Below are positions 12,923-62,200 of a stretch of DNA of 64,000 bases, in pieces. The position numbers and the translations under genes are program-made. Below the pieces are notes generated by a model. That model did not search any database. It was not told the origin of the DNA and was given only the letters and a program-made list of their open reading frames with translations. The stretch is from an uncultured Alphaproteobacteria bacterium (GTDB lineage Bacteria; Pseudomonadota; Alphaproteobacteria; JALCBB01). Numbering within the stretch: the first letter of the stretch is position 1; each line of letters opens with the position of its first letter. The DNA is taken from assembly GCA_958267355.1 (NCBI GenBank), contig OY279575.1:1100335-1164334 (forward strand), given 5' to 3'.

Positions 12923-14353
12923 ATGCGGATTTTTGACTCGGTGCATGGGCTTATCCCTTTTGAGGGGAATTACGCCGAGCTGCGCGGCGTGATTGACACG
13001 CCTGCCTTTCAGCGGCTTAGGCGTATTCGTCAGCTGGGCGTGTCGGACTTGGTCTATCCAGGGGCTACCCATAGCCGCTTTGCCCATTCGGTCGGAGTGT
13101 TTCATGTTGCGCGTAAGCTGCTGGAAATTGTCCGCCAACAGCTGGGCAATGACTACGATGCAGAGCAAGGCAAAGTTGCAGTCGTAGCCGCTTTATTGCA
13201 CGACATCGGCCACGGGCCTTTCTCGCATGTTTTTGAGTCGGCTTTGGCTTTGGCACACGAAGGCGGCTGGAGTGGCTCGGGAGAAGTTGTGCGCCACGAA
13301 GTTTGGACAGCACGGATTATCCGTGAAGATACGCAGCTTGCGGCGGCGTTAGACAAAGTAGGCAAGGCTTGGGCTGTGCAAAACCTTGGCGACAAGGTAG
13401 CGGCTCTGATTGGCAAGGAAGACAAAAATCAAGTCCGTGGAGTCTATTCTGAAATTGTTTCCTCGCAGTTTGATGCAGACCGCTTGGATTATCTTGTCCG
13501 TGATGCACGGGCAACAGGCGTAGATATCGGCAACTTTGAACGCGAGTGGCTTTTAGACTGCTTGCGAATTGCCCACAACGACAAGGGCGAGCCACACTGG
13601 GTAATTGCGACAAAAGGCAGACAAGCGGTTGAAGCCTATTTATTGGCGCGCTTGCAGTTGCATGAAATTATTTATCAGCATCCGACAGCGTGGCGATACG
13701 AAAGCGCTTTCGGAGCCTTTATCGCAAGCCTGCTTGTACAGCTCAATGAAGGAGCAATTTCTACCGAACAAGTTGAAGGCGATGCAGTCTTGCGTTTTCT
13801 GAGCCAGTGGCGGCAGGGCAAAGCCAACACGGCTTCGTACCTAGCAATGGATGACGCGGCGGTTTGGGCACGGATTGCCGATGAAGCTGATGATTTCCGT
13901 GGCACGGAAGAGACGAGTCCCGCGACTTTCTGGGCACGGTTTTTGACGCGGCGACAGCCACTTCCGTTTATGGATCTGCAACCCTTGCCGCGTGACCCCG
14001 GAGCGACTCCGCGTGATGTAAAAAACCTGCTCGGAAAATTTGCAAAAGAAGCCCGCGAAACTTTAGAGCTTCATCCAGGACAATTACGCTACTATGTTTT
14101 GTCTGCCTATCGTGAAAGTGGCCCTGACCCTGATATCTTAATTCAAGACCGAGACGAAAAATCGGCTCGCCCAATCCACGAAATTTCTCCTCTGGTTAGA
14201 AGCATACGCGGCACTTATTTCTGCCGCGTGTATTTCCCGAACCAGAAGATCTTTGCAGAAAAACGCGAAGCCATTACCAAACTAGAGCAAACATTTTGCG
14301 CACCTTGCGGTGCGGCATCAATGCCAAGCCTTGGTACTTCTACCAGCTGCTAG
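12923..14353 (+). CDS. HD-domain phosphohydrolase (dNTPase/SAMHD1-like)
   Basis: The 476-residue protein, read from the ATG at 12923, belongs to the HD superfamily group that includes dGTPases and SAMHD1. It starts MRIFDSVHGLIPFEGNYAELRGVIDTPAFQRLRRIRQLG, then THSRFAHSVGVFHVA with metal-type His, HDIGHGPFSH (93-102), and FDADRLDYLVRDA (about 184-196). The likely role is hydrolysis of dNTPs, though the substrate is not proved. It is divergent from lpdA. The last roughly 15 codons run into the first unit of a 99-base tandem array, so the true ancestral C-terminus was probably different. The upstream extension to 12809 is not supported, since it overlaps the lpdA start. Confidence 0.85.
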   Translation: MRIFDSVHGLIPFEGNYAELRGVIDTPAFQRLRRIRQLGVSDLVYPGATHSRFAHSVGVFHVARKLLEIVRQQLGNDYDAEQGKVAVVAALLHDIGHGPFSHVFESALALAHEGGWSGSGEVVRHEVWTARIIREDTQLAAALDKVGKAWAVQNLGDKVAALIGKEDKNQVRGVYSEIVSSQFDADRLDYLVRDARATGVDIGNFEREWLLDCLRIAHNDKGEPHWVIATKGRQAVEAYLLARLQLHEIIYQHPTAWRYESAFGAFIASLLVQLNEGAISTEQVEGDAVLRFLSQWRQGKANTASYLAMDDAAVWARIADEADDFRGTEETSPATFWARFLTRRQPLPFMDLQPLPRDPGATPRDVKNLLGKFAKEARETLELHPGQLRYYVLSAYRESGPDPDILIQDRDEKSARPIHEISPLVRSIRGTYFCRVYFPNQKIFAEKREAITKLEQTFCAPCGAASMPSLGTSTSC

Positions 14354-14705
14354 GCTCCATAACTTCAAGGTTAGGCTTCTTGGTTTCACTCCCCCCTTAA
14401 TGTTTAGCGGTGCAGCACCTGTGCCAAGCCTTGGTACTTCTACCAGCCGCTAGGCTCCATAACTTCAAGGTTAGGCTTCTTGGCTTCACTGCCCCTTAAT
14501 GTTTAGCGGTGCAGCACCTGTGCCAAGCCTTGGTACTTCTACCAGCCGCTAGGCTCCATAACTTCAAGGTTAGGCTTCTTGGCTTCACTCCCCCTTAATG
14601 TTTGGCGGTGCAGCACCTGTGCCAAGCCTTGGTACTTCTACCAGCCGCTAGGCTCCATAACTTCAAGGTTAGGCTTCTTGGCTTCACTCCCCCTTAGCGT
14701 TTGGC
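14311..14705. repeat. 99-bp tandem array between two convergent gene ends
   Basis: Four copies of a 99-100 base unit lie between the HD gene and the phage holin gene; the motif TGCCAAGCCTTGG recurs at 14322, 14422, 14521 and 14620. The first copy encodes the C-terminus of the HD protein, and the last contains the stop region of the minus-strand holin gene. Units differ by only a few bases, so the expansion is recent. Each contains AAGCCT and AGGCTT arms able to pair. Confidence 0.92.
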
Positions 14706-23520: not shown

Positions 23521-23755
23521 CTTTTTCTGTTGGCTTGGTTTCTGTTGGTGTCTGTTGGTTTCTGTTCGCTAGGTTTGTGTTCGTTAGATTTCCGTTGGCT
23601 AGATTTCTGTTCGCTAGGTTTCTGTTCGCTAGATTTCTATTGGCTAGATTTCCGTTGGCTAGATTTCTATTGGCTAGATTTCTGTTCGCTAGGTTTCTGT
23701 TCGCTAGATTTCTATTGGCTAGGTGTCTGTTGGTGTCTGGTGGCTTGGCTTACTG
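23521..23755. repeat. 15-bp tandem array between portal and scaffold genes
   Basis: About fourteen copies of a 15-base unit (GCTAGATTTCTGTTG type, alternating ATTGGCTAG and GTTCGCTAG forms) occupy the whole gap. The array overlaps the last few portal codons. Plus-strand frames through it give spurious ARFLFARF-type peptides. Confidence 0.92.
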
Positions 23756-32124: not shown

Positions 32125-34674
32125 ATGAAGACGCAGGCTAGGGTTGTGGTAATCGGTGGAGGCGCAAATGGTGTCTCTACGCTGTTCCATTTGGCGCGCG
32201 CAGGATGGACGGATCTTGTCCTCTGCGAGCGCACCGAGCTAACGGCCGGCAGCACTTGGCATGCGGCGGGGCTGTTGCCGCTCTATCACTATTCATACAC
32301 CGCAGGGCAATTTCACAAATACTCGGTGGATTTCTACAAAACCCTCGGAGAAGAAACGGGACAAGAAGTTTCCTTTCACATCACAGGCAACTTGCGACTC
32401 GCCCACACCCGCGAGTGGATGGACGAATATCGCAAGTATTGTGGTATTGCCAACACCATTGGCGTGCCGTTTGAGATGGTCACTCCGCAGGAGATTAAAG
32501 AGCTGTGGCCCTTCGCCGAAGTAGATGACTTAATCGGCGGAATTTATCATCCGCAGGATGGGCATATTGCTCCTGCCGATGTTACCTATGCTATGGCGAA
32601 GGGCGCGCGCGCACTGGGGGCTGAGATTTACCAGCACACGCCTGTCCGCGATATTGTCGGGGCGGGCAATCAGCAGTGGCGCGTCATCACCGAAAAAGGA
32701 GAAATCACTTGCGAGCATATCGTGCTTGCCACAGGCAACTATGCACGAGAGATGGGAGCTTTGCTCGGCTTGGATATTCCTGCCATTCCGATGCAGCACC
32801 AATACATTGTGACGGAAGAACATCCAGTACTGGTTGAGCGGCACGCCCAGGGTTTGCCTGAACTTCCTGTGCTACGCGATGCCCGCGGGCAGTACTATAT
32901 GCGCGAAGAGCGTAAGGGTTTGATTTTGGGTCCGTATGAAAAAGACTCGCCCGCTGTCTTCGTTGATGGCGTAGATAAGGGCTTTGAGAAAGATCTATTC
33001 CCTGGCGATCTAGACAGGCTTATGCCCCATGTAGAAGCCGCTATGAAACGTGTGCCGATTTTTGCTGAAGTCGGTATCAAAGATGTAATCAACGGGCCCA
33101 TGCAATACACGCCTGATGGTACGGCGTTGGTGGGTCCAGCTTGGGGCTTGCGGAATGTCTGGCTCAACGAAGGACACACTTACGGTATCGTTGGTGCCGC
33201 TGGCGTAGGTAACGCTCTGTCGGCTTGGATTATAGATGGCGAGCCACCGCTTGATATGTGGGATTACGACCCGCGTCGTTATGGTGACTGGGCGGACAAG
33301 GATTACACCAAGGCAAAGAATGAAGAAACCTATAGCCGTATGTATCATCCGCACTATCCGAACGAAGAATTTCCAGCCGCCCGCCCCAAACGCACCAGTG
33401 CCCTACACGAACGCCTAGACAAGCACACACCCGTGTGGGGACAACGCTACGGCTTAGAAGTTCCGCTCTGGTATTCGGTAGCAGGAGAAAAACGCGAAGA
33501 CACGCCTTCGTTCCGCCGCAGTAATGACTGGGATGCAGTCCGCCGTGAAGTCTTGGGCTTGCACGAAAACGCAGGCTTAATGGATATATCAGGTTTTTCC
33601 AACTTTGAAGTCAGTGGCAGTGGAGCCGAAGCTTGGCTTGACTCCTTGCTGGCGAATAAAGTGCCGACTCAAAATGGCTCGTTGCGTCTGTGCCACGCAC
33701 TACATCGTGACGGAGGAATTCGCAGCGAATTCACCGTCACCCGCCTTGGCACAGATAAGTTTTATGTTGTGGCTCCGACTATGGCAGAGCGTTACGACTG
33801 GGACTTCTTAACCAAAGCCGCCGAAGGTATCACAGGCGTAGAAGTGAAAAACCGCTACAAAGAAATGGGCACTTTAGTCATCGCAGGAGCCAAATCACGC
33901 GAGCTACTGCAACCGCTCACCAACGCAAGCCTTGCCACCGCGGACTTTCCGTGGCTGTCGGGGCAAGAAATCACGGTCGCAGGACAAGCCGCTGTCCGTG
34001 CCTTGCGCGTGAACTTCGTTGGCGACTTGGGCTGGGAGCTACACGCCTCGCGTGAAGCCCTGCCCGCAATCTACGATGCACTCCTAGAACAAAGCGCACA
34101 GCAAAACGCGGGCTTAACCCATGTCGGTATGCGAGCCCTTAACAGCTTGCGGCTTGATAAATCCTACCGCCTGTGGGCAGTGGATTTGACTCCTGATTAC
34201 AGCATTTACGAAGCGGGTATGGGCAGGTTTGTGCGACTCAACAAAGTAGGCGGATTCCACGGACGCGATGCACTCGTCGCAGGCAACGAAGCAGGCTGGA
34301 AAAAATCTTTCGTCACCCTAGAAATCCACAACGACCCTGAAAGCACAGGCACAGGAGCAGGCGGTATGCGCGGCGTCGGAGCAGGCTTACGCGATGATGC
34401 TGATCGTCCTGTCGCTGACCCCTATGTCAACGAACCGCTCTTCCTCGCAGGAAGCGGAACAGGCGCAAGCGGCGATATCAGCGCCATGGTCGGACGCGTA
34501 ACTTCAGGCGGCAGAGCCCATCGCTTAGACAAAACTCTAGCCCTCGCCTATCTAGACACAGAACACGCCGCCGAAGGCACAGAGCTAGAAATTGAAATCT
34601 TGGGTGTGCGCTATGCGGCGATTATCATTAGCGAGTCGCCTTTTGACCCAGAAAATGCCCGCTTGAAGGCTTAA
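32125..34674 (+). CDS. DMGDH-like FAD dehydrogenase with GcvT domains (first paralogue)
   Basis: These flavoenzymes oxidatively demethylate N-methylglycines such as dimethylglycine or sarcosine and pass the methylene to tetrahydrofolate. The 849-residue product has VVVIGGGANGVSTLFHLARAG (FAD binding) and ERTELTAGSTWHAAGLLP, whose His corresponds to the covalent-flavin site of mammalian DMGDH. A C-terminal GcvT region follows (ELHASREALPAIYDALLEQ, GMRALNSLRLDKSYRLW). A Gly-rich insertion of about 30 residues near residue 735-780 is absent from its paralogues. The Shine-Dalgarno GAGGAG is strong. It is the first of three related genes, and the substrate is unknown. Confidence 0.9.
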   Translation: MKTQARVVVIGGGANGVSTLFHLARAGWTDLVLCERTELTAGSTWHAAGLLPLYHYSYTAGQFHKYSVDFYKTLGEETGQEVSFHITGNLRLAHTREWMDEYRKYCGIANTIGVPFEMVTPQEIKELWPFAEVDDLIGGIYHPQDGHIAPADVTYAMAKGARALGAEIYQHTPVRDIVGAGNQQWRVITEKGEITCEHIVLATGNYAREMGALLGLDIPAIPMQHQYIVTEEHPVLVERHAQGLPELPVLRDARGQYYMREERKGLILGPYEKDSPAVFVDGVDKGFEKDLFPGDLDRLMPHVEAAMKRVPIFAEVGIKDVINGPMQYTPDGTALVGPAWGLRNVWLNEGHTYGIVGAAGVGNALSAWIIDGEPPLDMWDYDPRRYGDWADKDYTKAKNEETYSRMYHPHYPNEEFPAARPKRTSALHERLDKHTPVWGQRYGLEVPLWYSVAGEKREDTPSFRRSNDWDAVRREVLGLHENAGLMDISGFSNFEVSGSGAEAWLDSLLANKVPTQNGSLRLCHALHRDGGIRSEFTVTRLGTDKFYVVAPTMAERYDWDFLTKAAEGITGVEVKNRYKEMGTLVIAGAKSRELLQPLTNASLATADFPWLSGQEITVAGQAAVRALRVNFVGDLGWELHASREALPAIYDALLEQSAQQNAGLTHVGMRALNSLRLDKSYRLWAVDLTPDYSIYEAGMGRFVRLNKVGGFHGRDALVAGNEAGWKKSFVTLEIHNDPESTGTGAGGMRGVGAGLRDDADRPVADPYVNEPLFLAGSGTGASGDISAMVGRVTSGGRAHRLDKTLALAYLDTEHAAEGTELEIEILGVRYAAIIISESPFDPENARLKA

Positions 34675-34675
34675 T

Positions 34676-34702
34676 AACTCAACATAACTCAACATAACTC
34701 AA
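34676..34702. repeat. 11-bp tandem repeat
   Basis: Three copies of ATAACTCAACA lie between the first dehydrogenase stop and the outer-membrane gene. The first contains the end of the dehydrogenase gene region. Confidence 0.85.
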
Positions 34703-34716
34703 CGGAAACTTTAATC

Positions 34717-35451
34717 GTGCGTAGCGCATTTCATCTTGCCTTTTGCTTGGTGGTTCTGTTGGTGGCTGTGCTGGCAATGGCTTTTGCTGTCGGCGAGCAG
34801 GCCTATGCTGACGAAAGCTCGGCGAAGCACTTCTACATCGGAGCAGGCTTAAACGAAGTGCGGGTTTCGTTTGATGACTCTGAATACGAAAATTATGTGC
34901 GCGACAAATTCCGTGGAGTTAACCTGTACTTCGGCAAACGCCTATCTTCGCGCACGGCACTGGAATTGGGCTATGTGCGCTTACAGAACTCTAAGCAGTC
35001 GGTGACGACTCCCAATCGGCAGACTCCGTTTCGGCTTTTTGACACGGAAGGGGTAGCGGCTCCGCAGACTACGGCTACGACAAAAGCGACTGTGCAGGGG
35101 TTTCACGCTGACGCTCTGCGTTTCTTTCCTCTACATAGCGGCAGGCAAAGCGACACGAGCCACAGCCGCCAGCCTGCCAAAGCCGAAGCCATCGCCACAA
35201 TCGGAGTCCTACGCCTCAACAGCAAGGTTTCGGTAGAAACCAACAAGCCCCTAACCACCCAAGGCGGAGCCATCAGCCGCTTTGGTGCGGAGAAATCGTT
35301 TTTAACGCCCCGCCTTGGTGGCGGGCTACAATGGCGGCTGGGCGGGAAGGCGCGTTTGCGTGGTTTGCTCCACTATTACCCTGTAGACCGCTTTCAAGAT
35401 ATCATCGGCTCGGCGTGGAGCGGCTCGCTTTCGTTGAATTTCTCTTTTTAA
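34717..35451 (+). CDS. Outer-membrane beta-barrel protein (first paralogue)
   Basis: The 244-residue protein starts with GTG and has a signal peptide (hydrophobic core LAFCLVVLLVAVLAMAFAV, cleavage near QAYA-DES). An eight-stranded-type barrel follows: HFYIGAGLNEVRVSF, RTALELGYVRL, PRLGGGLQWRLGGKARLRGLLHYYP, and the terminal LSLNFSF ending in Phe, as outer-membrane proteins do. It is clearly related to the frame-shifted protein at 41692 (RGLLHYYP versus RGLLRYYP; LNFSF versus FNFSF). It sits between two dehydrogenase genes. Its function is unknown; a small adhesion or porin-like surface protein is possible. Confidence 0.8.
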   Translation: MRSAFHLAFCLVVLLVAVLAMAFAVGEQAYADESSAKHFYIGAGLNEVRVSFDDSEYENYVRDKFRGVNLYFGKRLSSRTALELGYVRLQNSKQSVTTPNRQTPFRLFDTEGVAAPQTTATTKATVQGFHADALRFFPLHSGRQSDTSHSRQPAKAEAIATIGVLRLNSKVSVETNKPLTTQGGAISRFGAEKSFLTPRLGGGLQWRLGGKARLRGLLHYYPVDRFQDIIGSAWSGSLSLNFSF

Positions 35452-35508
35452 CTCGGCGGCTAGCCCTTCAGCTTGGCGGCTAGCCTTTCAACTTGGCAGT
35501 TAGCCTTA
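35447..35508. repeat. About 22-bp tandem repeat after the barrel gene
   Basis: Three copies of GGCGGCTAGCCTTTCAACTT-type sequence follow the barrel stop codon. Confidence 0.8.
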
Positions 35509-35676
35509 AAAAAAATTGTCTAAAATTGCCTTGCTACCCCTTGCCGCTTTTGCCGAGCCTTGGCACGATACGAGTCCTGCAGATTGTTTTGCAAATGTGG
35601 GTACAATACCTGCCGTACACGAACGCACACGAACGCAAGCGGATGAGAAAAGGCAGGAGAAAACGAGAGAGGAATT

Positions 35677-38133
35677 ATGAAAGATAAAGCACGAGTTGTC
35701 GTCATCGGTGGCGGAGTCGTCGGAGTCTCCACCTTGTATCACCTTGCCCGTGCGGGCTGGAGCGATATCGTTCTGTGCGAACGCACCGAGCTAACCGCGG
35801 GAAGCACTTGGCATGCGGCGGGCTTGTTACCGTTGTTTAATATGTCTTACACAGTCGGGCAGATTCACAAGTACTCGGTGGATCTATATAAATCGCTGGA
35901 AGCTGAAACGGGGCAAGATGTTTCTTTCCATGTCAATGGCAATTTGCGCCTTGCTTGCAACCAAGAACGTATGGACGAATATAAAAAGTACTGCGGCACG
36001 GCGAATACAATTGGCGTGCCGTTTCGTTTGATTACCGTTGAGGAAATAAAATCGCTCTGGCCTCCGATTAACGAAAAGGGTTTGGTAGGGGCTTTGTATC
36101 ATCCCGATGATGGACATATTGCGCCCGTTGATTTAACCAACGCTCTTGCTAAGGGTGCGCGTTCTTACGGAGCCGAAATTTATCAACACACCCCTGTGAC
36201 GGGTGTAACCCGTACGCAAAGCGGTGAGTGGCGTGTGGCGACAGAGAAAGGTGAAATCACCTGCGAGCATATTGTCTTGGCGACGGGCAACTATGCACGG
36301 CAAAGCGGCAAGCAGTTTTTCGGCTTGGATGTACCTGCAGTTCCTGTTGAACACCAATACATCGTCACCGACGAACACCCCGTGCTGGTGGAGCGACACA
36401 AGAACAACGAGCCTGAGTTAGCGGTTTTGCGTGAAAGCGATGAATCGTACTATATGCGTGAAGAGCGCAAGGGACTTATCTTGGGCCCATACGAAAAGGG
36501 TGCACCGGCTCGTTTCCTTGACGGAGTAGATGCGGGCTTTGAGAAAGATCTATTCCCAGGCGACTTGGATAGGCTTATGCCGCATGTAGAAGCGGCGATT
36601 AGGCGTGTGCCGATGTTTGAAGAAGTAGGGATTAAAGACATAGTTAACGGGCCCATTTCTTACACGCCTGATGGTAGCCCACTGGTTGGTCCTGCTTGGG
36701 GTGTGCCGAATGTTTGGCTTAACGAAGGGCATTCGTTTGGCGTTACGGCGGCGGGCGGAAGCGGGCACTTTTTGTCGCAGTGGATGATTAACGGCGAGCC
36801 ACCGATTGATATGATGGCAGTAGATCCACGCCGCTTTGGGGCTTATGTAGACCGCGAATACCTGAAAGAGAAAAACGAAGAGTGCTACGCCCATGTCTTT
36901 ATCATTCACTATCCTGATGAAGAGCGACCTGCGGCTCGTCCGAAGAAGACTACGCCGATTTACGACCGCCTAGCCAAGCACGGCGCAGTCTTCGGACAAC
37001 GCTACGGATGGGAACGCGCCAACTGGTTTGCTCCGCAGGGTACGGAAGCCAAAGATGTTTGGTCTTTCCGCCGTAGCAACTACTTCCCGCATGTGGGCGA
37101 TGAGTCTAAGGCTTTGCGTGAGCGGGTGGGTTTGATTGATTTGACTCCCTTCACCAAATACTTCATCAGCGGAGCAGGTGCAGAAGCTTGGCTTGACTCC
37201 TTGGTGGCGAACCGTGTGCCGCGTAAGATTGGCAGAATGGCTTTGTGCCATGCGCTAACCGATGGCGGTGGTGTGCGGAGTGAATTCACCATCACCCGCA
37301 TCGGCGAAGACTCCTTCTATGTTGTCAGCTCAGGAGCGGCAGAGCGGTTTGACGGCGATTACCTAGAAAAGCACCTACCCGCAAGCGGAGTCACACTAGA
37401 AAACCGCACCTTAGAAATGGGTACTTTGGTCGTGGCGGGCCCACAATCACGCGAGCTGTTGCAACCCTTGACCGATAGCGACTTGTCTAACGCGGCGTTT
37501 CCGTGGCTATCGGCGCAAACGATAGCCCTTGGCGGACATAAAAACATTCACGCCCTGCGGGTCAATTTCGTTGGCGAGCTTGGCTGGGAGCTACACCTGC
37601 CAATCGACTCCCTAGCCCCTGTGTTTGATGCGGTGGTAGAAGCGGGCAAGCAGTACGATATTGCCCAAGTGGGAATGCGGGCAATGGATGTACTCCGCAT
37701 TGAGAAATCGTATCGTATGTGGGCACAAGACCTGACGACTGAATACTCAATTCTAGAAGCGGGATTAGACAGGTTTGTCCGCCTTGGCAAAGAGGGAAGC
37801 TTTCGTGGCGAAGCCGCATTAGAAAAGCAGAAAGCCACGGGTGTGCCGCAGGGTTTCGTCACCTTAGAAGTGGATATAGAACAACGCGGCGATAGACCCC
37901 TTGCTGACCCCATCGGCAATGAGCCCTTATTCGCCAATGGCGAGATGATTGGGCGAGCGACTTCGGGGTGTTACGGACACAACTTGGGCAAATCCCTAGC
38001 CTTGGGCTATGTGCGAGCAGGATTAGACACGCTTGGCACAGAGTTAGAGATAGAAGTTTTGCGCGAGCGTTTTGTTGCACGGGTGATTGAAGAGTCGCCG
38101 TGGGATCCTGAAAATGAAAGGCTACGGGCTTGA
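35677..38133 (+). CDS. DMGDH-like FAD dehydrogenase with GcvT domains (second paralogue)
   Basis: The 818-residue product is closely related to the gene at 32125, with long shared stretches (GFEKDLFPGDLDRLMPHVEAA, ELTAGSTWHAAGLLP). It has the same order: N-terminal FAD domain, central domain, and C-terminal GcvT-like folate domain (GMRAMDVLRIEKSYRMW). It starts with a strong GAGAGAGGAATT site. It probably uses a related N-methylated substrate. The pair looks like a local duplication, with an outer-membrane gene now between the copies. Confidence 0.9.
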   Translation: MKDKARVVVIGGGVVGVSTLYHLARAGWSDIVLCERTELTAGSTWHAAGLLPLFNMSYTVGQIHKYSVDLYKSLEAETGQDVSFHVNGNLRLACNQERMDEYKKYCGTANTIGVPFRLITVEEIKSLWPPINEKGLVGALYHPDDGHIAPVDLTNALAKGARSYGAEIYQHTPVTGVTRTQSGEWRVATEKGEITCEHIVLATGNYARQSGKQFFGLDVPAVPVEHQYIVTDEHPVLVERHKNNEPELAVLRESDESYYMREERKGLILGPYEKGAPARFLDGVDAGFEKDLFPGDLDRLMPHVEAAIRRVPMFEEVGIKDIVNGPISYTPDGSPLVGPAWGVPNVWLNEGHSFGVTAAGGSGHFLSQWMINGEPPIDMMAVDPRRFGAYVDREYLKEKNEECYAHVFIIHYPDEERPAARPKKTTPIYDRLAKHGAVFGQRYGWERANWFAPQGTEAKDVWSFRRSNYFPHVGDESKALRERVGLIDLTPFTKYFISGAGAEAWLDSLVANRVPRKIGRMALCHALTDGGGVRSEFTITRIGEDSFYVVSSGAAERFDGDYLEKHLPASGVTLENRTLEMGTLVVAGPQSRELLQPLTDSDLSNAAFPWLSAQTIALGGHKNIHALRVNFVGELGWELHLPIDSLAPVFDAVVEAGKQYDIAQVGMRAMDVLRIEKSYRMWAQDLTTEYSILEAGLDRFVRLGKEGSFRGEAALEKQKATGVPQGFVTLEVDIEQRGDRPLADPIGNEPLFANGEMIGRATSGCYGHNLGKSLALGYVRAGLDTLGTELEIEVLRERFVARVIEESPWDPENERLRA

Positions 38134-38174
38134 AGACAAGCCTGAAGTCTGTGCTTGAGTGAGGAAAAATCACG

Positions 38175-40598
38175 ATGAAGAATGAATGCAAAGTTGCGGT
38201 TATCGGCGGCGGAGTTGTCGGCTGTAGTATTCTCTACCACTTAGCCAAGCTGGGCTGGAAAGATGTGACTCTATTTGAGCGGCGTGAGCTGACAGCGGGT
38301 TCTTCGTGGCATGCGGCGGGTGGATTTCATACGATTAATGCTGATCCGTATATTGCTGAGTTGCAGGCTTATACGATTAAGCTCTACGCCGAGTTAGAGG
38401 AGATGACAGGGCAAAGCACGGGAATTCATCGCATCGGAGGAATTAACTTGGCTTCGTCTCCTGCACGACGCGATTACTTGAAGAGCAGTTTGTCGGTGGC
38501 GAAGACTTTAGGGATTGAGCTTTATTCGGTGACGATGGAAGAAGTCAAGAATATGGCACCGATTATGAATGTGGATGATGCACTCTTTGCCACGTATGAT
38601 CCGTTAGATGGCTACCTTGACCCGACGATGACAACGCATGTCTACGCCAAGGCGGCACGTATGCTAGGAGCAGAAGTCGCAACGCACACCCCTGTTGAAG
38701 AAATGATTCAACGCAGTGATGGCTCGTGGGATTTGGTGACTCCGAATGGTACTGTGCATGCTGAAATTGTAGTTAACGCTGGCGGTTTGTGGGGTAGAGA
38801 AGTTGCGAAGCTGGCGGGGCATTTCTTGCCCCTGCAACCAATGGAACACCACTACTTAGTCACGGAGTCAATTCCTGAAGTTGCGGCTCTAGAAAAAGAG
38901 CTGGTGCATGTCGTGGATTTTGAAGGCGAAAGTTATATGCGCCAAGAAGGACAAGGCGTATTGCTTGGCACCTACGAAACCAATTGTGTGCCGTGGCAGA
39001 CTGAGTCCACGCCGCTAGATTTTGGTCCTGAACTTCTACCTGATGCGCTAGACCGTATTGCCAGTCGTTTAGAGTCGGCGTACAAGCGGTATCCGTGTTT
39101 GCGGGAAGCGGGGATTAAGCGTGTGGTTAATGGGCCCTTCACCTTCGCGGGCGATGGAAATCCGCTTGTGGGTCCTGTGCCTGAAATTCGCAACTACTTT
39201 GTAGCCTGTGGCGTGATGGCGGGCTTCAGCCAGGGGGGCGGAGTCGGCTTAGCCCTAGCGCAATGGATTATTGAAGGCGAGCCAGAAACCAACACGCTTG
39301 CCATGGATGTAACCCGCTACGGTTCGTGGGCGACGCAAGCCTTCGCCACCGAAAAGGTCAAGGAAAACTATGGGCGACGGTTTCAGATTACCTATCCGAA
39401 TGAAGAGTTGCCAGCGGGTCGCCCAGTGAAAACTATGTCCATCCACGACGAATATGTCGCGGCTGGAGCGGGCTTCACCTTCGTCTATGGCTTGGAGTGT
39501 CCGCTATGGTTTGCAGGCTCTCCTGAAGCCGCTCACGAAGAGCCGAGTTTTTACCACTCTACGGCACATCCCTTCGTGGAGCGTGAAGCCAAGGCGACTC
39601 GTGCCAATGTTGGTATCAGTGAAATTGCGATTTACGGCAAGCATTCGTGGCGGGGTCCTGAAGCGACTGCTACCTTGTCAAGGATTATGGCAGGGCGAAT
39701 TCCTGAAGTTGGCAAGGTATCGCTTTGTCCGATGTTATCGCCGCGTGGCAAGATGATTGGCGACTTTACAATTGCTCGTTTGGGAGAAGACGAATACTTT
39801 ATGGTTGGCTCACGAGCTTCTGAAGACTACCACCGCCGCTGGTTCTTGGAGCATATCCCACGCACAGGATTAGATTACGCTCCTTTGAGTAATGACATTC
39901 AGGGTTTCCTGCTATCTGGCCCGAAGGCGCGTGAGCTTCTGCAGGGATTAACCCCTTTGCCGTTAGACAACGCGGCGTTTCCCTTCTTCTCGTGTGCGCA
40001 TACGGAAGTGGCGGGTGTGCCTGCGCGGGTCTTGCGTTTGTCCTTCACAGGAGAGCTTGGCTACGAAGTCTATGTAGCCGAGTCGCACTTGGCGACTCTC
40101 TACCGTGCTTTGCTTGAAGCGGGCGAGGCGTTGAATGCATCGCTTGTTGGTGTGCGAGCGATTTTGTCCTTGCGTATGGAAAAAGGCTTCGGCTCGTGGA
40201 TGCGCGAATTCACGCCCGCCCAAACCGCAGTGCAATCAGGCTTGGACAGATTTGTCGCCAAGAAGCGCAATGACTTCATCGGAGCCGAAGCCTTCCGCCG
40301 TGAGCTAGAAGAAGGCGCACACCAGTACCTACGCCTGTTTGAAATAGAAGCTGACACACTAGACGCGATCGGCAACGAGCCGATACTGCTGAACGGCGAA
40401 TATTCGGGCTTTGTCACCTCGGGCGATAGGGGCTGGACAGTCGGCAAATCGTTAGCTTTGGGCTATGTCAAAAGCGAAGCCCTAACCGCGGGCGAAAACA
40501 GCGGCGATTGGGTGATTGAACTCTTGGGCGAACCCCGCAAGGCACACCTACTCACCGAATGCCCCGTAGACCCAACAGGCGCGCGTATGCGTAGCTAG
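38175..40598 (+). CDS. DMGDH-like FAD dehydrogenase with GcvT domains (third, divergent paralogue)
   Basis: The 807-residue product keeps AVIGGGVVGCSILYHLAKLGW, the flavin-site segment RRELTAGSSWHAAGGF and a C-terminal GcvT region (LSFTGELGYEVYVAESHLATLYRALLEAG). It differs more from the other two (TAGSSWHAAGG against TAGSTWHAAGLL), so it likely acts on a different N-methyl compound. It starts 41 bases after the second paralogue's stop and is probably cotranscribed with it. An inverted repeat (GGGGAATTGCC and GGCAAATTCCCC) follows its stop. Confidence 0.9.
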   Translation: MKNECKVAVIGGGVVGCSILYHLAKLGWKDVTLFERRELTAGSSWHAAGGFHTINADPYIAELQAYTIKLYAELEEMTGQSTGIHRIGGINLASSPARRDYLKSSLSVAKTLGIELYSVTMEEVKNMAPIMNVDDALFATYDPLDGYLDPTMTTHVYAKAARMLGAEVATHTPVEEMIQRSDGSWDLVTPNGTVHAEIVVNAGGLWGREVAKLAGHFLPLQPMEHHYLVTESIPEVAALEKELVHVVDFEGESYMRQEGQGVLLGTYETNCVPWQTESTPLDFGPELLPDALDRIASRLESAYKRYPCLREAGIKRVVNGPFTFAGDGNPLVGPVPEIRNYFVACGVMAGFSQGGGVGLALAQWIIEGEPETNTLAMDVTRYGSWATQAFATEKVKENYGRRFQITYPNEELPAGRPVKTMSIHDEYVAAGAGFTFVYGLECPLWFAGSPEAAHEEPSFYHSTAHPFVEREAKATRANVGISEIAIYGKHSWRGPEATATLSRIMAGRIPEVGKVSLCPMLSPRGKMIGDFTIARLGEDEYFMVGSRASEDYHRRWFLEHIPRTGLDYAPLSNDIQGFLLSGPKARELLQGLTPLPLDNAAFPFFSCAHTEVAGVPARVLRLSFTGELGYEVYVAESHLATLYRALLEAGEALNASLVGVRAILSLRMEKGFGSWMREFTPAQTAVQSGLDRFVAKKRNDFIGAEAFRRELEEGAHQYLRLFEIEADTLDAIGNEPILLNGEYSGFVTSGDRGWTVGKSLALGYVKSEALTAGENSGDWVIELLGEPRKAHLLTECPVDPTGARMRS

Positions 40599-40691
40599 CG
40601 GGGAATTGCCTGATAATTTCCTGCTTTTCTCTGTTTTTTCTGGGCAAATTCCCCCCTTGCTTTTACCTGCTACATCCCGCATAATGTCTGC

Positions 40692-40757
40692 AACATCCCC
40701 ATCGCCCAAGGGCGTTGGCTGCAGGGCCGTCTCCTTCGGGAGACGGCTCTAGCTTTT
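40692..40757 (+). ncRNA. Predicted small RNA, copy 1
   Basis: A sigma-70-like promoter, TTGCTT (40657-40662), 17 bases, CATAAT (40680-40685), predicts a start near 40692. The body forms CTGCA/TGCAG around a 9-pair hairpin (40699-40707 with 40710-40718, one T-T mismatch). A 12-pair stem with a TTCG loop (40723-40750) and AGCTTTTTCT end it. No open frame of useful length is present. It could be a trans-acting sRNA or an RNA linked to the downstream NYN gene. Confidence 0.72.
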
Positions 40758-40798
40758 TCTCCCTTGCTTTTACCCAATAGATACCGCATAATAATTGC

Positions 40799-40866
40799 AA
40801 CGTCCCCAGTGCCCAAGGGTGCTGGTTGCAGAGCCGTCTCCTTCGGGAGGCGGCTCTAGCCTTTTT
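40799..40866 (+). ncRNA. Predicted small RNA, copy 2
   Basis: The promoter is TTGCTT (40764-40769), 17 bases, CATAAT (40787-40792). The body hairpin pairs 40806-40814 with 40817-40825. Against copy 1, a T-T mismatch becomes G-C, a C-G becomes T-G and a G-C becomes G-T, so the stem is kept. The terminator stem (40830-40857, TTCG loop) is followed by AGCCTTTTTA. It ends about 30 bases before the NYN start codon. Confidence 0.72.
40830..40866 (+). terminator. Intrinsic terminator directly before the second NYN gene
   Basis: A 12-pair GC-rich stem closed by a TTCG tetraloop is followed by five T residues. Any transcript reaching the NYN gene from upstream must read through this stop, so NYN expression may be limited by it. 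Confidence 0.85.
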
Positions 40867-40895: not shown

Positions 40896-41525
40896 ATGCA
40901 GAAGAAAAAGACATGCGTCTATTTTGACGGGCATAATTTTTTCAAGTACTACCTGAAAGGCCAACCCGCAGGATACAAGTGGCTTGATCTACAAGCCTTC
41001 ATGGAAAACCTTATGGGGGATGAGTACGATATCCACAAAATACACTATTTTACAGCAGGTGTTCTTGACTTCCCCGACGCCAAGGATAGGCATGGAAATC
41101 AACAAACCTATCTTCGCGCACTCAGAACACTTGATACTGTGCATATCGTACTGGGAAAATTTCAAAAATCAAAAGCTCTTCTTCCACTAGTAAAAGAAAA
41201 ATCCCAACGCGCTTATGTATACGCGATAAAAGAAAAACAAACAGATACGAATCTAATCACACAGATGTTTGAAGATGCGTGGGAGGAAAAATTTGATTCC
41301 GCTGTTCTGGTATCAGCGGACTCCGACTTTGTGGCTTGCGTTATCGCCTTAAGAAGACTTTCTGGCAAGGAGATAGGCGTTGCCTTGGCTCGTGGAGAGG
41401 GCAAAGATTTACGCAAAAATGCGTCTTTCATAAAAGATATTCACCCTGGGCTGATTTGTGGCTCGCAGTTTGCCCCAACCCTGCCTGGCAGAAGAAAGCC
41501 CATTCGCAAGCCCCTTGGGTGGTGA
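40896..41525 (+). CDS. NYN/PIN-like domain ribonuclease-type protein (second copy)
   Basis: The 209-residue protein is a NYN/LabA-like PIN-fold nuclease. VYFDGHNFF has Asp11, KEKQTDTNLI has Asp117, and LVSADSDFVACV has Asp142 and Asp144, the expected metal-binding set. A basic C-terminal tail (GRRKPIRKPLG) follows. It is not a close paralogue of the NYN gene at 10508 but shares the fold. It lies directly after two tandem small-RNA units and a strong terminator, a layout recalling type III toxin-antitoxin loci, where a nuclease gene follows repeated RNA antitoxins. That function is inference. Codon use is more AT-rich than in the dehydrogenase genes. Confidence 0.82.
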   Translation: MQKKKTCVYFDGHNFFKYYLKGQPAGYKWLDLQAFMENLMGDEYDIHKIHYFTAGVLDFPDAKDRHGNQQTYLRALRTLDTVHIVLGKFQKSKALLPLVKEKSQRAYVYAIKEKQTDTNLITQMFEDAWEEKFDSAVLVSADSDFVACVIALRRLSGKEIGVALARGEGKDLRKNASFIKDIHPGLICGSQFAPTLPGRRKPIRKPLGW

Positions 41526-41691
41526 ATTGGGCGTTTTATTACCCGCTCCTTTTTTGTGGTATTCTAAAATCTCCTGTGGGGGCGAGTGGCGACCAAGTCG
41601 TAGCACCTGTCTCTATATCGACATAAATCTCTGCTAGACCTTTAGTCCAGTTGGGTTTTTGATTAAAAATATCCTGAAGGAGTGAAACACC

Positions 41692-42389
41692 ATGACTTTA
41701 CTTAACAAACTCTTACCAAACGCAAAGGGGGGGGGGGGGCATCCCTACTTTTAGTAGTATTCGCTACTTTCCTTCTACTTTCTAGTAATCCAGCGAACGC
41801 TGAATTCAAACCTTACATCGGCGGCGATTTCGGTACCCTCAAAGTAGGCTGGGCAGATGGAGAAGATGGAGGCAACTTTGACCACTTCTCCAAAGATCGT
41901 TTTCGTAGCCTAAACTTTCATGTTGGTGCGCGTTTCACGAATCGGTTCTCTGCGGAGCTCGGGTACACAACTCTGGGCGGAAATAAGAAAACTGCATCTG
42001 AGACAGTGGCTGCAAACACAGTCGAAGAAACTTACACGGAGCTCAAAGCGAAGGGGTTTAATATAGATGGATTCTTTCACTTTCCTATCAGTGGTGGGAA
42101 TATGGAAGCACTCGCTACTGCTGGTGTGTTTCGTTGGAACCTGACGGATAAGGGGCACGGTACAACCATAACGAGCGGCTCGAGAGGAGACCCAGAACCC
42201 TTTGACCTCAAGTATAAATATACGGGGCTACGTCTCGGTGGCGGATTGCAGTACAACATCAATGAAAAATTCTCCATTCGTGGCCTGTTGCGCTACTACC
42301 CTCTAAATGGCTTCGATAGAGAAGATGCAGATATAGAAGTTCTTGACAGTGCGTGGGATGCGACAATTGGTTTCAACTTCTCCTTCTAA
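41692..42389 (+). pseudogene. Outer-membrane barrel protein, out of frame at a 13-G tract (phase-variable)
   Basis: The ATG at 41692 (GGAG about 10 bases upstream) opens a signal peptide interrupted by 13 G residues at 41727-41739. In this sequence the frame ends within five codons (TAG). The body, in another frame, reads ASLLLVVFATFLLLSS, a cleavage site NPANA-EFKPYIGG, barrel strands and the terminal FNFSF at 42389. With 14 or 11 G the two join into one intact pre-protein of about 230 residues. It is a paralogue of the barrel at 34717. Either this is a slipped-strand phase-variable gene caught in the off state, or the homopolymer length is an assembly error. A good terminator follows. Confidence 0.82.
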
Positions 42390-42420
42390 GCTCTGTTCTC
42401 TAGCCTTTTAGGCTTTTATA

Positions 42421-42456
42421 CCCCCGCTTGGCTTTATGCTGGGCGGGGGTTTTTTC
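42421..42456 (+). terminator. Intrinsic terminator after the barrel gene
   Basis: CCCCCGC (42421-42427) pairs with GCGGGGG (42443-42449), followed by TTTTTTC. It isolates the barrel gene from dxs. Confidence 0.9.
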
Positions 42457-59209: not shown

Positions 59210-62200
59210 TTATGCGTCTTCGCCGCGCAACCGCTCGCCGTCAGGGTCCAGAAACATCGGCGGGACAATCTTGCACGGCACTGCCGCTCCTTTGACAAGA
59301 GCCGATATGGTTTCTCCGTGGCGTTTGTGTCCGCGGCGTAGAAGCCCCATCGCAAAACCACGCTTCAAAGTCGGACTCATATACGACGAAGTAACATGCC
59401 CCAAAATCGGAAACGGCGGCGTTAACTCTCCTGCCCCCAAAGGCACACCTTCAGGCAAAACCAAAGTCTCGTTTTCAGGCAAAAGCCCAACCAACTGCTT
59501 ACGATCTTCACGGCGCATTCCTGCGCGTTCGGCTCCGCGTCTGCCAACATAATCCTTCTTGGTAGAGCAAAGCCCTGATAAACCCAAATCGTCAGGCGTA
59601 GTCGTACCTTCGTTATCTTGTCCCGCAATAATGAAACCCTTTTCAGCTCGCAACAGATGCATTGACTCCGTGCCGTAGGGCGTAATCTTGTACTCAGCAC
59701 CCGTTTCCATTAAGTCTTCCGCAACCGATACCGCCGCTTCAGGTGCCATATGAATTTCGTACCCCAGCTCACCCGTAAAAGACACACGCAAAATTCGCGC
59801 TTTGGCTCCGCAGACTTGCCCTTCACGGAAACGCATATAAGGAAACGCTTCGTGTCCTAAATCAATGTCGGTCAGCGGCTGTAAAACCTTACGCGCCTTC
59901 GGACCATTCAACGCCAAAGCCGCCCATTGCTCGGTGATGGAAGTAAGCCAAACTTCTAAGTCTGTCCATTCGGTTTGTAGCCACAACTCCAGCCACGCCA
60001 AAACCCGCGGTGCCCCCCCCGTAGTCGTAGAAATAAAGAAACGATCATCAGCCAGCCGCGAGATGACTCCATCATCAAACAGCGTACCTTCTTCGTTTAA
60101 CATCAAACCATAGCGACAAGCCCCCGCAGGCATTTTCAGCATTCCATTGGTATAGACACGATTCAAAAACTCTGCCGCGTCTTTGCCACGCACTTCAATC
60201 TTGCCAAGCGTAGATGCATCCATAAAGCCCACCGACTCGCGCACCGCCGCCGACTCGCGTTGGACTGCCCGGTGCATATCTTCTCCCGCCTTCGGATAGT
60301 ACCAAGCCCGCATCCACTGCCCGACAGGCTCAAACGCCGCTCCGAGAGTCACAGACCAATCGTGCAGGGGGGTAATCCGCTCGGGCTGTAAGAAGTCATC
60401 CAGCTCCCGCCCCGCAAAAGCCGCCAAAGTCGTAGGCGTATAGGGAGCCCGAAAAGTTGTGACTCCAACTTCGTTCATCGGCAAACCGCGTATCTTAGAA
60501 ACAATCCGTATCGCATTAACATTGGCAAGCTTACCTTGATCCGTTGCCATACCCGTTGTCGTATAGCGTTTGACATGTTCAATCGACTCGTAGCCTTCAC
60601 GAATGGCAAGCGCCAAGTCTTTAGCCGTAGAGTCGTTTTGTAAATCCACGAAGGCTTTACCGCGTTTGCCTTTAATCCACGCGATGGAGTCGCAATCCAA
60701 CGCGCCTTCTGCGCCGTGAATGGCTCCATAGGCAGGAGCTGTTGCGCCGACAGCACTTGCCCCTGCTGTAGCTCCTTCTTGCACCGCCTGTGCTAAGGCG
60801 AAAGAAGCGGCGGCTCCGCCAACGATTGCCATTCCTGCAGGAGCTTCCGCGACAATGAAGCAAGCCTGTTCTTCGTTCCACTGTACTTTTGCTCCCTGAT
60901 GGGAAGGCAGGTGAATCACCGGAGACCAACCACCACTCACCGCCAAAGAATCACAAGACATCAAAACCCCGCCGCGTTGGGCGACTCCTTCTTCGTCAAT
61001 CGGAGCAATCCGCAGGTGGTGCAAGTCGTGCCAGCCACGGGCGCGTGAAATTCCGTGGCCAGGGAAAATCGTCACCCCGCACTCCAAAAGCCGTTGTGCC
61101 ATAGCTCCACTCGGAGCAGGGCGCGTATCCACAATTGCCTTAACCTCAACTCCCGCTTCTATCAAACTAAGTGCCGAAACATAGCCGCTGTTGTTATTGG
61201 TAAAGACAATTGTTCTGTCCCCAGGCTTTACCGCAAAGCGATTGGCATAGGTAGCTGCAGACGAAGCCAGAGTCACTCCGGGCAAATCGTTATTGGCAAA
61301 AACCATCGGACGCTCAATGGCTCCTGTGGCAATCACCGACCGCGGAGCCCGCAGCCACCACATTCTTTGCCGTGGAGCATTCGGCTTGTCCTGCTCGGTG
61401 CCGTGATGGCGTAGCCGCTCCAATAGCCCCCACATTCCGTGTTCGTATGCCGCAAAGCAAGTGGTGTTCGGCAAAACTTGCACATTGTCCATTGCCGCGA
61501 GTTCGCGTTGCATCTTGGCGAGCCAAGCCCGTGCAGGCTCTCCGTCTATGGTCTCGCCTGTGCGGGCAAGCAGACTCCCCCCTAGAAGCCAATCCTGCTC
61601 TACCAGCACAACCCGCTTGCCGCTCTGCCCAGCGGCGTGGGCGGCGGCTAAGCCTGCGGCTCCACCGCCGACGACCAGCACTTCAGCGTAGGCATAACGC
61701 CGCTCATAGGAGTCAGGATCAGCCTGACCCGATGCACATCCCAAACCTGCGCTACGGCGAATCATCGGCTCGTAGCGTTTGTGCCACCAAGCCGCAGGAC
61801 TCATAAAAGTCTTGTAATAAAACCCCGCTGGCAAAAACGGAGACAAAAAGTTATTCACCGAAAGCAAGTCAAAGTCCAAACTTGGCCAGGCGTTTTGTGG
61901 CACGGCGTTGAGTCCTTCGGTTAGCAGAACTTCTGTTGCTCGCAGGTTGGGAGTCATCCGCCCGTTGCGTCCGACTGTGACCAGTGCGTTGGGCTCTTCT
62001 ACGCCTGCCGTATAGATCCCCCGCGGACGGTGATACTTGAAGCTACGTCCGACGAAGTGGATTCCGTGAGCAAGCAAGGCACTTGCTAAGGTATCGCCGT
62101 GAAAGCCGTGCAGGGTTCTTCCGCCCCAAGAAAATTGGAGCAGTTGCGAACGATCGATATGTCCGCCGCTTGGCAGACGATATTTTGCGACAGCTTTCAC
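59210..62200 (-). CDS. soxA: Sarcosine oxidase alpha subunit
   Basis: SoxA binds NAD+ and contains a folate-binding GcvT-like C-terminal half, passing methylene to tetrahydrofolate. The 996-residue product has FSWGGRTLHGFHGDTLASALLAHG and RGIYTAGVEEPNALV near the start. The dinucleotide fold VLVVGGGAAGLAAAHAAGQSG (about 174-194) follows, then a C-terminal aminomethyltransferase region (MPAGACRYGLMLNEEGTLFDDGVISRL). Length is typical. It is in the operon soxB-soxD-soxA-soxG. Confidence 0.96.
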   Translation of the reverse strand: MKAVAKYRLPSGGHIDRSQLLQFSWGGRTLHGFHGDTLASALLAHGIHFVGRSFKYHRPRGIYTAGVEEPNALVTVGRNGRMTPNLRATEVLLTEGLNAVPQNAWPSLDFDLLSVNNFLSPFLPAGFYYKTFMSPAAWWHKRYEPMIRRSAGLGCASGQADPDSYERRYAYAEVLVVGGGAAGLAAAHAAGQSGKRVVLVEQDWLLGGSLLARTGETIDGEPARAWLAKMQRELAAMDNVQVLPNTTCFAAYEHGMWGLLERLRHHGTEQDKPNAPRQRMWWLRAPRSVIATGAIERPMVFANNDLPGVTLASSAATYANRFAVKPGDRTIVFTNNNSGYVSALSLIEAGVEVKAIVDTRPAPSGAMAQRLLECGVTIFPGHGISRARGWHDLHHLRIAPIDEEGVAQRGGVLMSCDSLAVSGGWSPVIHLPSHQGAKVQWNEEQACFIVAEAPAGMAIVGGAAASFALAQAVQEGATAGASAVGATAPAYGAIHGAEGALDCDSIAWIKGKRGKAFVDLQNDSTAKDLALAIREGYESIEHVKRYTTTGMATDQGKLANVNAIRIVSKIRGLPMNEVGVTTFRAPYTPTTLAAFAGRELDDFLQPERITPLHDWSVTLGAAFEPVGQWMRAWYYPKAGEDMHRAVQRESAAVRESVGFMDASTLGKIEVRGKDAAEFLNRVYTNGMLKMPAGACRYGLMLNEEGTLFDDGVISRLADDRFFISTTTGGAPRVLAWLELWLQTEWTDLEVWLTSITEQWAALALNGPKARKVLQPLTDIDLGHEAFPYMRFREGQVCGAKARILRVSFTGELGYEIHMAPEAAVSVAEDLMETGAEYKITPYGTESMHLLRAEKGFIIAGQDNEGTTTPDDLGLSGLCSTKKDYVGRRGAERAGMRREDRKQLVGLLPENETLVLPEGVPLGAGELTPPFPILGHVTSSYMSPTLKRGFAMGLLRRGHKRHGETISALVKGAAVPCKIVPPMFLDPDGERLRGEDA

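What the first reader, a model, noticed from the sequence alone, without database searches (positions are those of the whole stretch)
41692..42389. Phase-variable outer-membrane barrel switched off by a 13-G tract in its signal peptide
Thirteen G residues (41727-41739) follow the start of a signal peptide. As written the frame stops after a few codons; with 14 or 11 G it joins a full signal peptide and barrel ending in Phe. Slipped-strand poly-G switches are classic for surface proteins, and this is the paralogue of an intact barrel at 34717. It might be a phage receptor or immune-escape switch.
Basis: partly seen in the sequence, partly recalled or inferred. Interest (0 to 1): 0.75.

Follow-up and report, generated by a model that had tools for sequence, protein, structure and literature searches.

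The report
Poly-G switch in outer-membrane barrel gene
A run of 13 G's in the export signal of a small outer-membrane protein puts its gene out of frame, very probably as a reversible on/off switch of a kind familiar from pathogens, here in an unnamed alphaproteobacterium whose nearest sequenced relative carries similar runs at the starts of several genes.

Summary
There are 13 G's at 41727-41739, 35 nt into a gene with a good ribosome-binding site. As written it makes a 20-residue peptide. The rest of the signal peptide and an intact 8-stranded barrel (PF13505; predicted fold like OmpA, NspA and Ail) lie in another frame with no usable start of their own. It is the longest G/C run in the 1.86-Mb genome and the only one of 10 or more inside a gene. 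Best explanation: a translational phase-variation locus switched by slippage. In the only same-family genome held, the barrel's closest homologue has a 13-C run about 100 nt upstream of its start, a TRAP binding protein has a 14-C run inside its signal peptide (also out of frame as assembled), and a type I methylase gene has a 12-G run upstream. Of 13 runs of 10 or more in the two genomes, 3 fall in signal-peptide DNA, against about 1% for random positions. Length variation between cells was not testable, so a miscounted tract in a normal gene remains the main rival. Nothing specifically supports a phage-receptor or immune-escape role. New member of a known kind.

The parts
41676..41682 (+). 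Shine-Dalgarno-like GAAGGAG, 9 nt before the ATG
   Evidence: read
41692..41738 (+). start codon and N-terminal part of the signal peptide, up to and into the tract; as written the frame ends in a 20-residue peptide
41727..41739 (+). 13-G homopolymer tract, the proposed slippage switch
41739..42389 (+). rest of the signal peptide and 8-stranded outer-membrane barrel (PF13505), open for 216 codons, in a different frame from the ATG
42420..42450 (+). intrinsic-terminator-like hairpin with T run after the barrel gene, before dxs
   Evidence: 13 pairs; consensus match only
41516..41545 (+). weaker terminator-like site between the NYN-domain gene and the barrel gene
   Evidence: consensus match only
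34717..35451 (+). intact paralogous barrel without a homopolymer tract
34674..34703 (+). three perfect copies of ATAACTCAAC directly before the paralogue's start; the only place in the genome where the repeat occurs

Best explanation
The locus is a translational phase-variation (contingency) locus. Replication slippage in the 13-G tract between the charged start and the hydrophobic core of the signal peptide changes the tract length. One length class in three gives a full signal peptide and an exported 8-stranded outer-membrane barrel; the other two end within about 20 residues and leave the cell without the protein. The sequenced copy is in an OFF length. Shown: the tract, the split frame, the intact barrel frame, the absence of another start, and similar tracts in the sister genome. 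Inferred: that the length varies between cells, that the protein reaches the outer membrane, and that switching is selected.
For: Anatomy: tract, frames and missing alternative start; the barrel frame is conserved and not decayed (PF13505 E 9e-14; eight strands, mean pLDDT 75; VIA-align Z 18.6, rmsd 2.3 over 165 residues to OmpA 1bxw, and Z 17.8, rmsd 2.6 over 153 to NspA 1p4t). The gene has its own ribosome-binding site and terminator-like hairpin, so only it would be switched. It is the only run of 10 or more in a gene of this genome. Sister genome G001: 13-C run 97-109 nt before the ATG of the barrel's best homologue; 14-C run inside the signal peptide of an intact DctP-type binding protein, out of frame as assembled; 10-G run in the signal peptide of another DctP protein, in frame; 12-G run 92-103 nt before hsdM. 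Runs of 10 or more in signal-peptide DNA: 3 of 13 in the two genomes; random positions 85 of 7000; P about 0.0005, or 0.009 when the window's own tract is set aside. Runs of 8-9: 1 of 85. In the window's genome, 8-nt runs spanned by a Pfam domain are in frame in 3 of 3 genes so checked (MTTB, LptD, HisZ), so short homopolymers are called well.
Against: No reads or second strain could be examined, so variation is not shown. A 13-G tract is the kind of sequence that assemblies miscount. Only 2 of 23 homologous barrel loci in 12 genomes carry a G/C run of 8 or more, so the trait is not conserved across the wider group. Of the other tracts of 10 or more, one is inside gcvH, a housekeeping gene, in frame, and several are in non-coding DNA, so some long tracts arise without being switches. 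The signal-peptide test was devised after seeing the case. MutS is present in both genomes, so no mutator background is evident.
Confidence: 0.72

Rival explanations
1. The tract length is miscounted in the assembly. The gene is in frame in most cells and is an ordinary outer-membrane barrel with a glycine run in its signal peptide.
For: Long homopolymers are error-prone; the rest of the gene is intact; the same kind of break occurs at the 14-C tract of the sister genome.
Against: Runs of 8 in this genome and of 10 in the sister genome that lie in genes are in frame. Even a miscounted 13-14 tract would be hypermutable, so this rival removes the OFF state but not the switch.
Confidence: 0.13
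2. Neutral slippage in a region of low constraint: the gene is recently and permanently inactivated, an early pseudogene, and not a selected switch.
For: The paralogue at 34717 could cover for it; several other long tracts in both genomes lie in non-coding DNA; tandem repeats are abundant in the window.
Against: There is no other damage in 216 codons (chance of an open frame about 8e-5). Long tracts are enriched in signal-peptide DNA in two genomes. The closest homologue has its own 13-nt tract upstream.
Confidence: 0.1
3. Transcriptional slippage or ribosomal frameshifting at the G run makes a mixture of products from one DNA length, so the protein is always made at a low level.
For: Long homopolymers can cause slippage by polymerases and ribosomes (general knowledge, no call).
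Against: Nothing in the sequence points to a programmed site; long runs in both genomes vary in length, position and base, which fits DNA-level slippage better.
Confidence: 0.05

Closest known systems
Neisseria Opa proteins
   Same: 8-stranded outer-membrane barrels (Opa60 among the structural matches, Z 12.8, rmsd 3.4 over 111 residues) that are phase variable (passages of PMC5953494); that the repeats lie in the leader-peptide coding region is recalled
   Different: Opa uses CTTCT pentamers; here a G homopolymer, and no sequence-level relationship to Opa was seen in Pfam
Treponema pallidum TP0126 (OmpW homologue)
   Same: small outer-membrane barrel controlled by a poly-G tract near the gene start (passages of PMC7864442)
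   Different: there the tract lies between -35 and -10 and changes transcription; here it is inside the coding sequence
Campylobacter autotransporters CapC and CapD
   Same: within one group of genes, G tracts sit either upstream of the start (capC) or in the coding sequence (capD) (passages of PMC7168839), as in the sister-genome and window barrels here
   Different: large autotransporters, other phylum; for capC the tract length did not track inactivation
N. meningitidis porA and opc promoters
   Same: poly-G or poly-C tracts controlling outer-membrane proteins (described in PMC7864442)
   Different: promoter tracts that grade transcription, not frame

Membership tests
Translational phase-variable (contingency) locus with a homopolymer | long homopolymer inside the 5' part of an open reading frame | tested here: met
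Translational phase-variable (contingency) locus with a homopolymer | length classes alternate between an open and a prematurely closed frame, with no other start | tested here: met
Translational phase-variable (contingency) locus with a homopolymer | tract length varies between cells, strains or reads | not testable with these tools
   no reads and no second strain; searches for the gene elsewhere found none
Translational phase-variable (contingency) locus with a homopolymer | expression switches with tract length | not testable with these tools
   needs proteomics or reporter assays
Translational phase-variable (contingency) locus with a homopolymer | tract recurs in homologous or functionally similar genes of relatives | tested here: inconclusive
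   2 of 23 barrel loci have a G/C run of 8 or more; signal-peptide tracts in two DctP genes of the sister genome
PF13505 OMP_b-brl, 8-stranded barrels of the OmpA/NspA fold | score above the curated cut-off | tested here: met
   52.4 bits against 28.7
PF13505 OMP_b-brl, 8-stranded barrels of the OmpA/NspA fold | eight transmembrane strands and C-terminal Phe | tested here: met
   (predicted model, not solved)
Opa | CTTCT repeats as the switch | tested here: not met
   the tract is poly-G
AcfA-family outer-membrane protein (NF033908) | score above the curated cut-off | tested here: not met
   21.6 bits against 100

The most novel reading that the evidence does not exclude
This uncultured alphaproteobacterial family runs a small set of contingency loci in which G/C tracts embedded in signal-peptide DNA, or just upstream of genes, switch surface barrels, periplasmic TRAP solute-binding proteins and a type I methylase on and off. 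Cells of one population would then differ in surface, nutrient uptake and DNA methylation.
Probability: 0.3. Interest if true: 0.6.

Novelty: new member of a known kind. Interest (0 to 1): 0.42.

Why it matters
Poly-G switches are best documented in host-adapted pathogens. A deep-branching, apparently uncultured family of alphaproteobacteria with the same arrangement would suggest that on/off variation of surface and uptake proteins is also used outside that setting. It would give concrete loci to test in metagenome reads. The pairing of a coding tract in one genus with an upstream tract on the closest homologue in another is a natural comparison of how such switches arise.

Tried and rejected
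Alternative starts for the barrel: none in frame before 42006. Loss of mismatch repair as the cause: MutS is present in both genomes; MutL was not searched. Close relatives with the same gene: none in genome contigs or viral contigs; a dxs search gave only distant relatives (best 64% identity), so the organism could not be named beyond Alphaproteobacteria. L014 from that search is not the sister genome (best stretch 73% identical). Other candidate switches in the window's genome: the other three runs of 10-11 are intergenic; one run of 8 near the start of an ABC permease passed the signal-peptide filter, but its hydrophobic stretch lies well downstream and it is in frame. Runs of 12 or more occur in 108 of 337 genomes of the class; among the 30 loci returned several lie at contig ends or beside N's, and the looser filter found 1 signal-peptide-like case (L259). 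Rfam and tRNA scans of the window found nothing. Literature: no paper held all terms. One search listed seven papers on slipped-strand phase variation that mention Alphaproteobacteria, of which I read passages of one (Bartonella BadA, PMC8859334). Searches were search listings. Searches listed 3 and 2 papers; from them I read only passages of PMC7168839. These searches do not show that the idea is absent from print.

Full report
Observation. The 13 G's are at 41727-41739. The ATG at 41692 follows a GAAGGAG and reads MTLLNKLLPNAKGGGGHPYF before a stop. Downstream, the frame from 41739 is open for 216 codons and encodes the hydrophobic core of a signal peptide, an ANA/E cleavage-like site (by eye) and a protein ending in NFSF. 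In that frame the sequence before the tract has a stop at 41703, and the first ATG, GTG or TTG after it is at 42006, inside the barrel. So the copy as written cannot make an exported barrel, and only one length class in three would.

What the protein is. It scores 52.4 bits to PF13505 (cut-off 28.7) and 28.7 to OmpA_membrane (cut-off 21). A five-sequence alignment gave an AlphaFold2 model with mean pLDDT 75 and eight long strands. Foldseek's best solved matches are OmpA, Ail, NspA and OmpX, and VIA-align gives Z 18.6 (rmsd 2.3, 165 aligned) to OmpA 1bxw, 17.8 (2.6, 153) to NspA 1p4t and 12.8 (3.4, 111) to Opa60 8qwq. It is not an AcfA-family protein by NCBIfam (21.6 against 100 bits). The gene lies between a NYN-domain gene and dxs and has its own terminator-like hairpin at 42420-42450, so a frame switch would affect it alone.

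Is the tract unusual? The genome is one contig of 1,859,045 bases. It has 43 G/C runs of 8 or more: 29 of 8, 10 of 9, 2 of 10, 1 of 11 and 1 of 13. Ours is the longest and the only one of 10 or more inside a gene; the other three are intergenic. Where a Pfam domain spans an 8-nt run in this genome (MTTB, LptD, HisZ), the frame is intact in 3 of 3 genes so checked; eight candidate genes were scanned, and in the other five no Pfam domain was seen to span the run in the best stretch shown. This argues against general homopolymer miscalling, though not against an error at 13.

Relatives. Of 59 genomes called relatives, only the window's own and one other, G001 (same family, other genus), have homologues at E 0.001. 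With the alignment as query, 12 of 337 genomes of the class have 23 homologous places at E 1e-6. Only 2 of those 23 loci carry a G/C run of 8 or more, and both runs at their starts are 13 long: ours, and the G001 gene most similar to it, which also has a 10-G run downstream. In G001 the 13-C run lies 97-109 nt before the ATG. With 4 runs of 11 or more in that genome and 3 barrels, such a coincidence has a probability of about 0.0016 (uniform placement). The G001 run sits in a repeated-looking intergenic stretch beside a G-rich complement (by eye), and no promoter is evident, so its function is open. Another G001 homologue (L012) lies between genes that look like those around the window's barrel (by eye) and has no tract.

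The wider pattern in G001. Its 56 G/C runs of 8 or more are 43 of 8, 4 of 9, 5 of 10 and one each of 11, 12, 13 and 14. The 14-C run lies inside the signal peptide of an intact DctP-type TRAP solute-binding protein and is out of frame as assembled (Pfam DctP E 1.7e-40 for the part after the tract). A 10-G run lies inside the signal peptide of another DctP protein, in frame. The 12-G run lies 92-103 nt before the likely start of hsdM (N6_Mtase and HsdM_N, with a Methylase_S gene behind it), and by eye a TTGACA-17-CATAAT pair lies between. The hsdM frame is also open through this run, so it could instead be an N-terminal extension. So all four runs of 12 or more in the two genomes lie in signal-peptide DNA or about 100 nt upstream of an outer-membrane or methylase gene. 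That grouping was noticed after the fact. Against it, a 10-G run lies inside gcvH, in frame, and the remaining runs of 10-11 were not assigned to a switchable gene.

Statistics. A strict filter (ATG, Shine-Dalgarno-like motif, hydrophobic N-terminus, 90 or more open codons after the tract in any frame) was met by 3 of 13 runs of 10 or more, by 1 of 85 runs of 8-9 (85 of the 86 known; one run, in the window at 60013, was left out), and by 85 of 7000 random positions (35 of 4000 in the window, 50 of 3000 in G001 loci, the latter including the tract loci themselves). P for 3 or more of 13 is 0.0005; for the 12 runs other than ours, 0.009. In a class-wide sample, runs of 12 or more occur in 108 of 337 genomes, and 1 of the 30 loci returned met a looser filter. 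So long G runs as such are not rare in the class, but their place in signal-peptide DNA is.

Mechanism. The best-supported account is replication slippage in the tract, giving ON cells with an exported barrel and OFF cells with a 20-residue peptide. Passages in PMC5953494 state that longer poly-G tracts have higher switching rates and that tracts up to G14 have been assayed in meningococci. The tract adds glycines between the charged and hydrophobic parts of the signal peptide, a place likely to tolerate them (inference). MutS is present in both genomes. What the barrel does is unknown; adhesion, complement or phage interaction are all possible for this fold and none is tested.

Known relatives of the mechanism. 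Coding and promoter poly-G switches of outer-membrane proteins are well known: TP0126 and Tpr proteins of Treponema (passages of PMC7864442), CapC and CapD of Campylobacter, where the tract is upstream in one family and coding in the other (passages of PMC7168839), and Opa of Neisseria with its own repeat type. This locus is a new member of that kind, in a lineage that could not be named; the closest dxs in genome contigs is 64% identical.

Noticed in passing
34674-34703: Three perfect copies of ATAACTCAAC directly before the start of the paralogous barrel; the repeat occurs nowhere else in the genome. It could be a second, spacing-type variable site.
   Followed up: partly
window, whole: Tandem repeats are very abundant: 58 rows in 64 kb, many with units of 12-15 or 24-30 bases, for example 14307-14696 (99-base unit) and 23559-23731 (15-base unit).
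   Followed up: no
40654-40866: Two copies of a 107-base unit, each with a strong terminator-like hairpin (CCGTCTCCTTCGGGAGACGG), between the FAD/GcvT gene and the NYN gene.
   Followed up: no
L246 (G001:C79:8346-8359): 14-C run in the signal peptide of a DctP-type TRAP solute-binding protein, out of frame as assembled, with the rest of the protein intact.
   Followed up: yes
L165:2768-2779 (G001:C37:5267-5278): 12-nt G run about 100 nt before a type I hsdM gene with hsdS behind it; a possible phase-variable methylase.
   Followed up: partly
G000:C1:700259-701333 (L140): Four G/C runs of 8-9 within 1.1 kb, on both strands, in similar sequence contexts; TTTGGCAATT plus a G run recurs near several genes and may be a mobile repeat.
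   Followed up: no
32125-40598: Three large genes in a row (849, 818 and 807 codons) that look alike, the third with FAD-oxidoreductase and GcvT domains, with the paralogous barrel between the first two.
   Followed up: no
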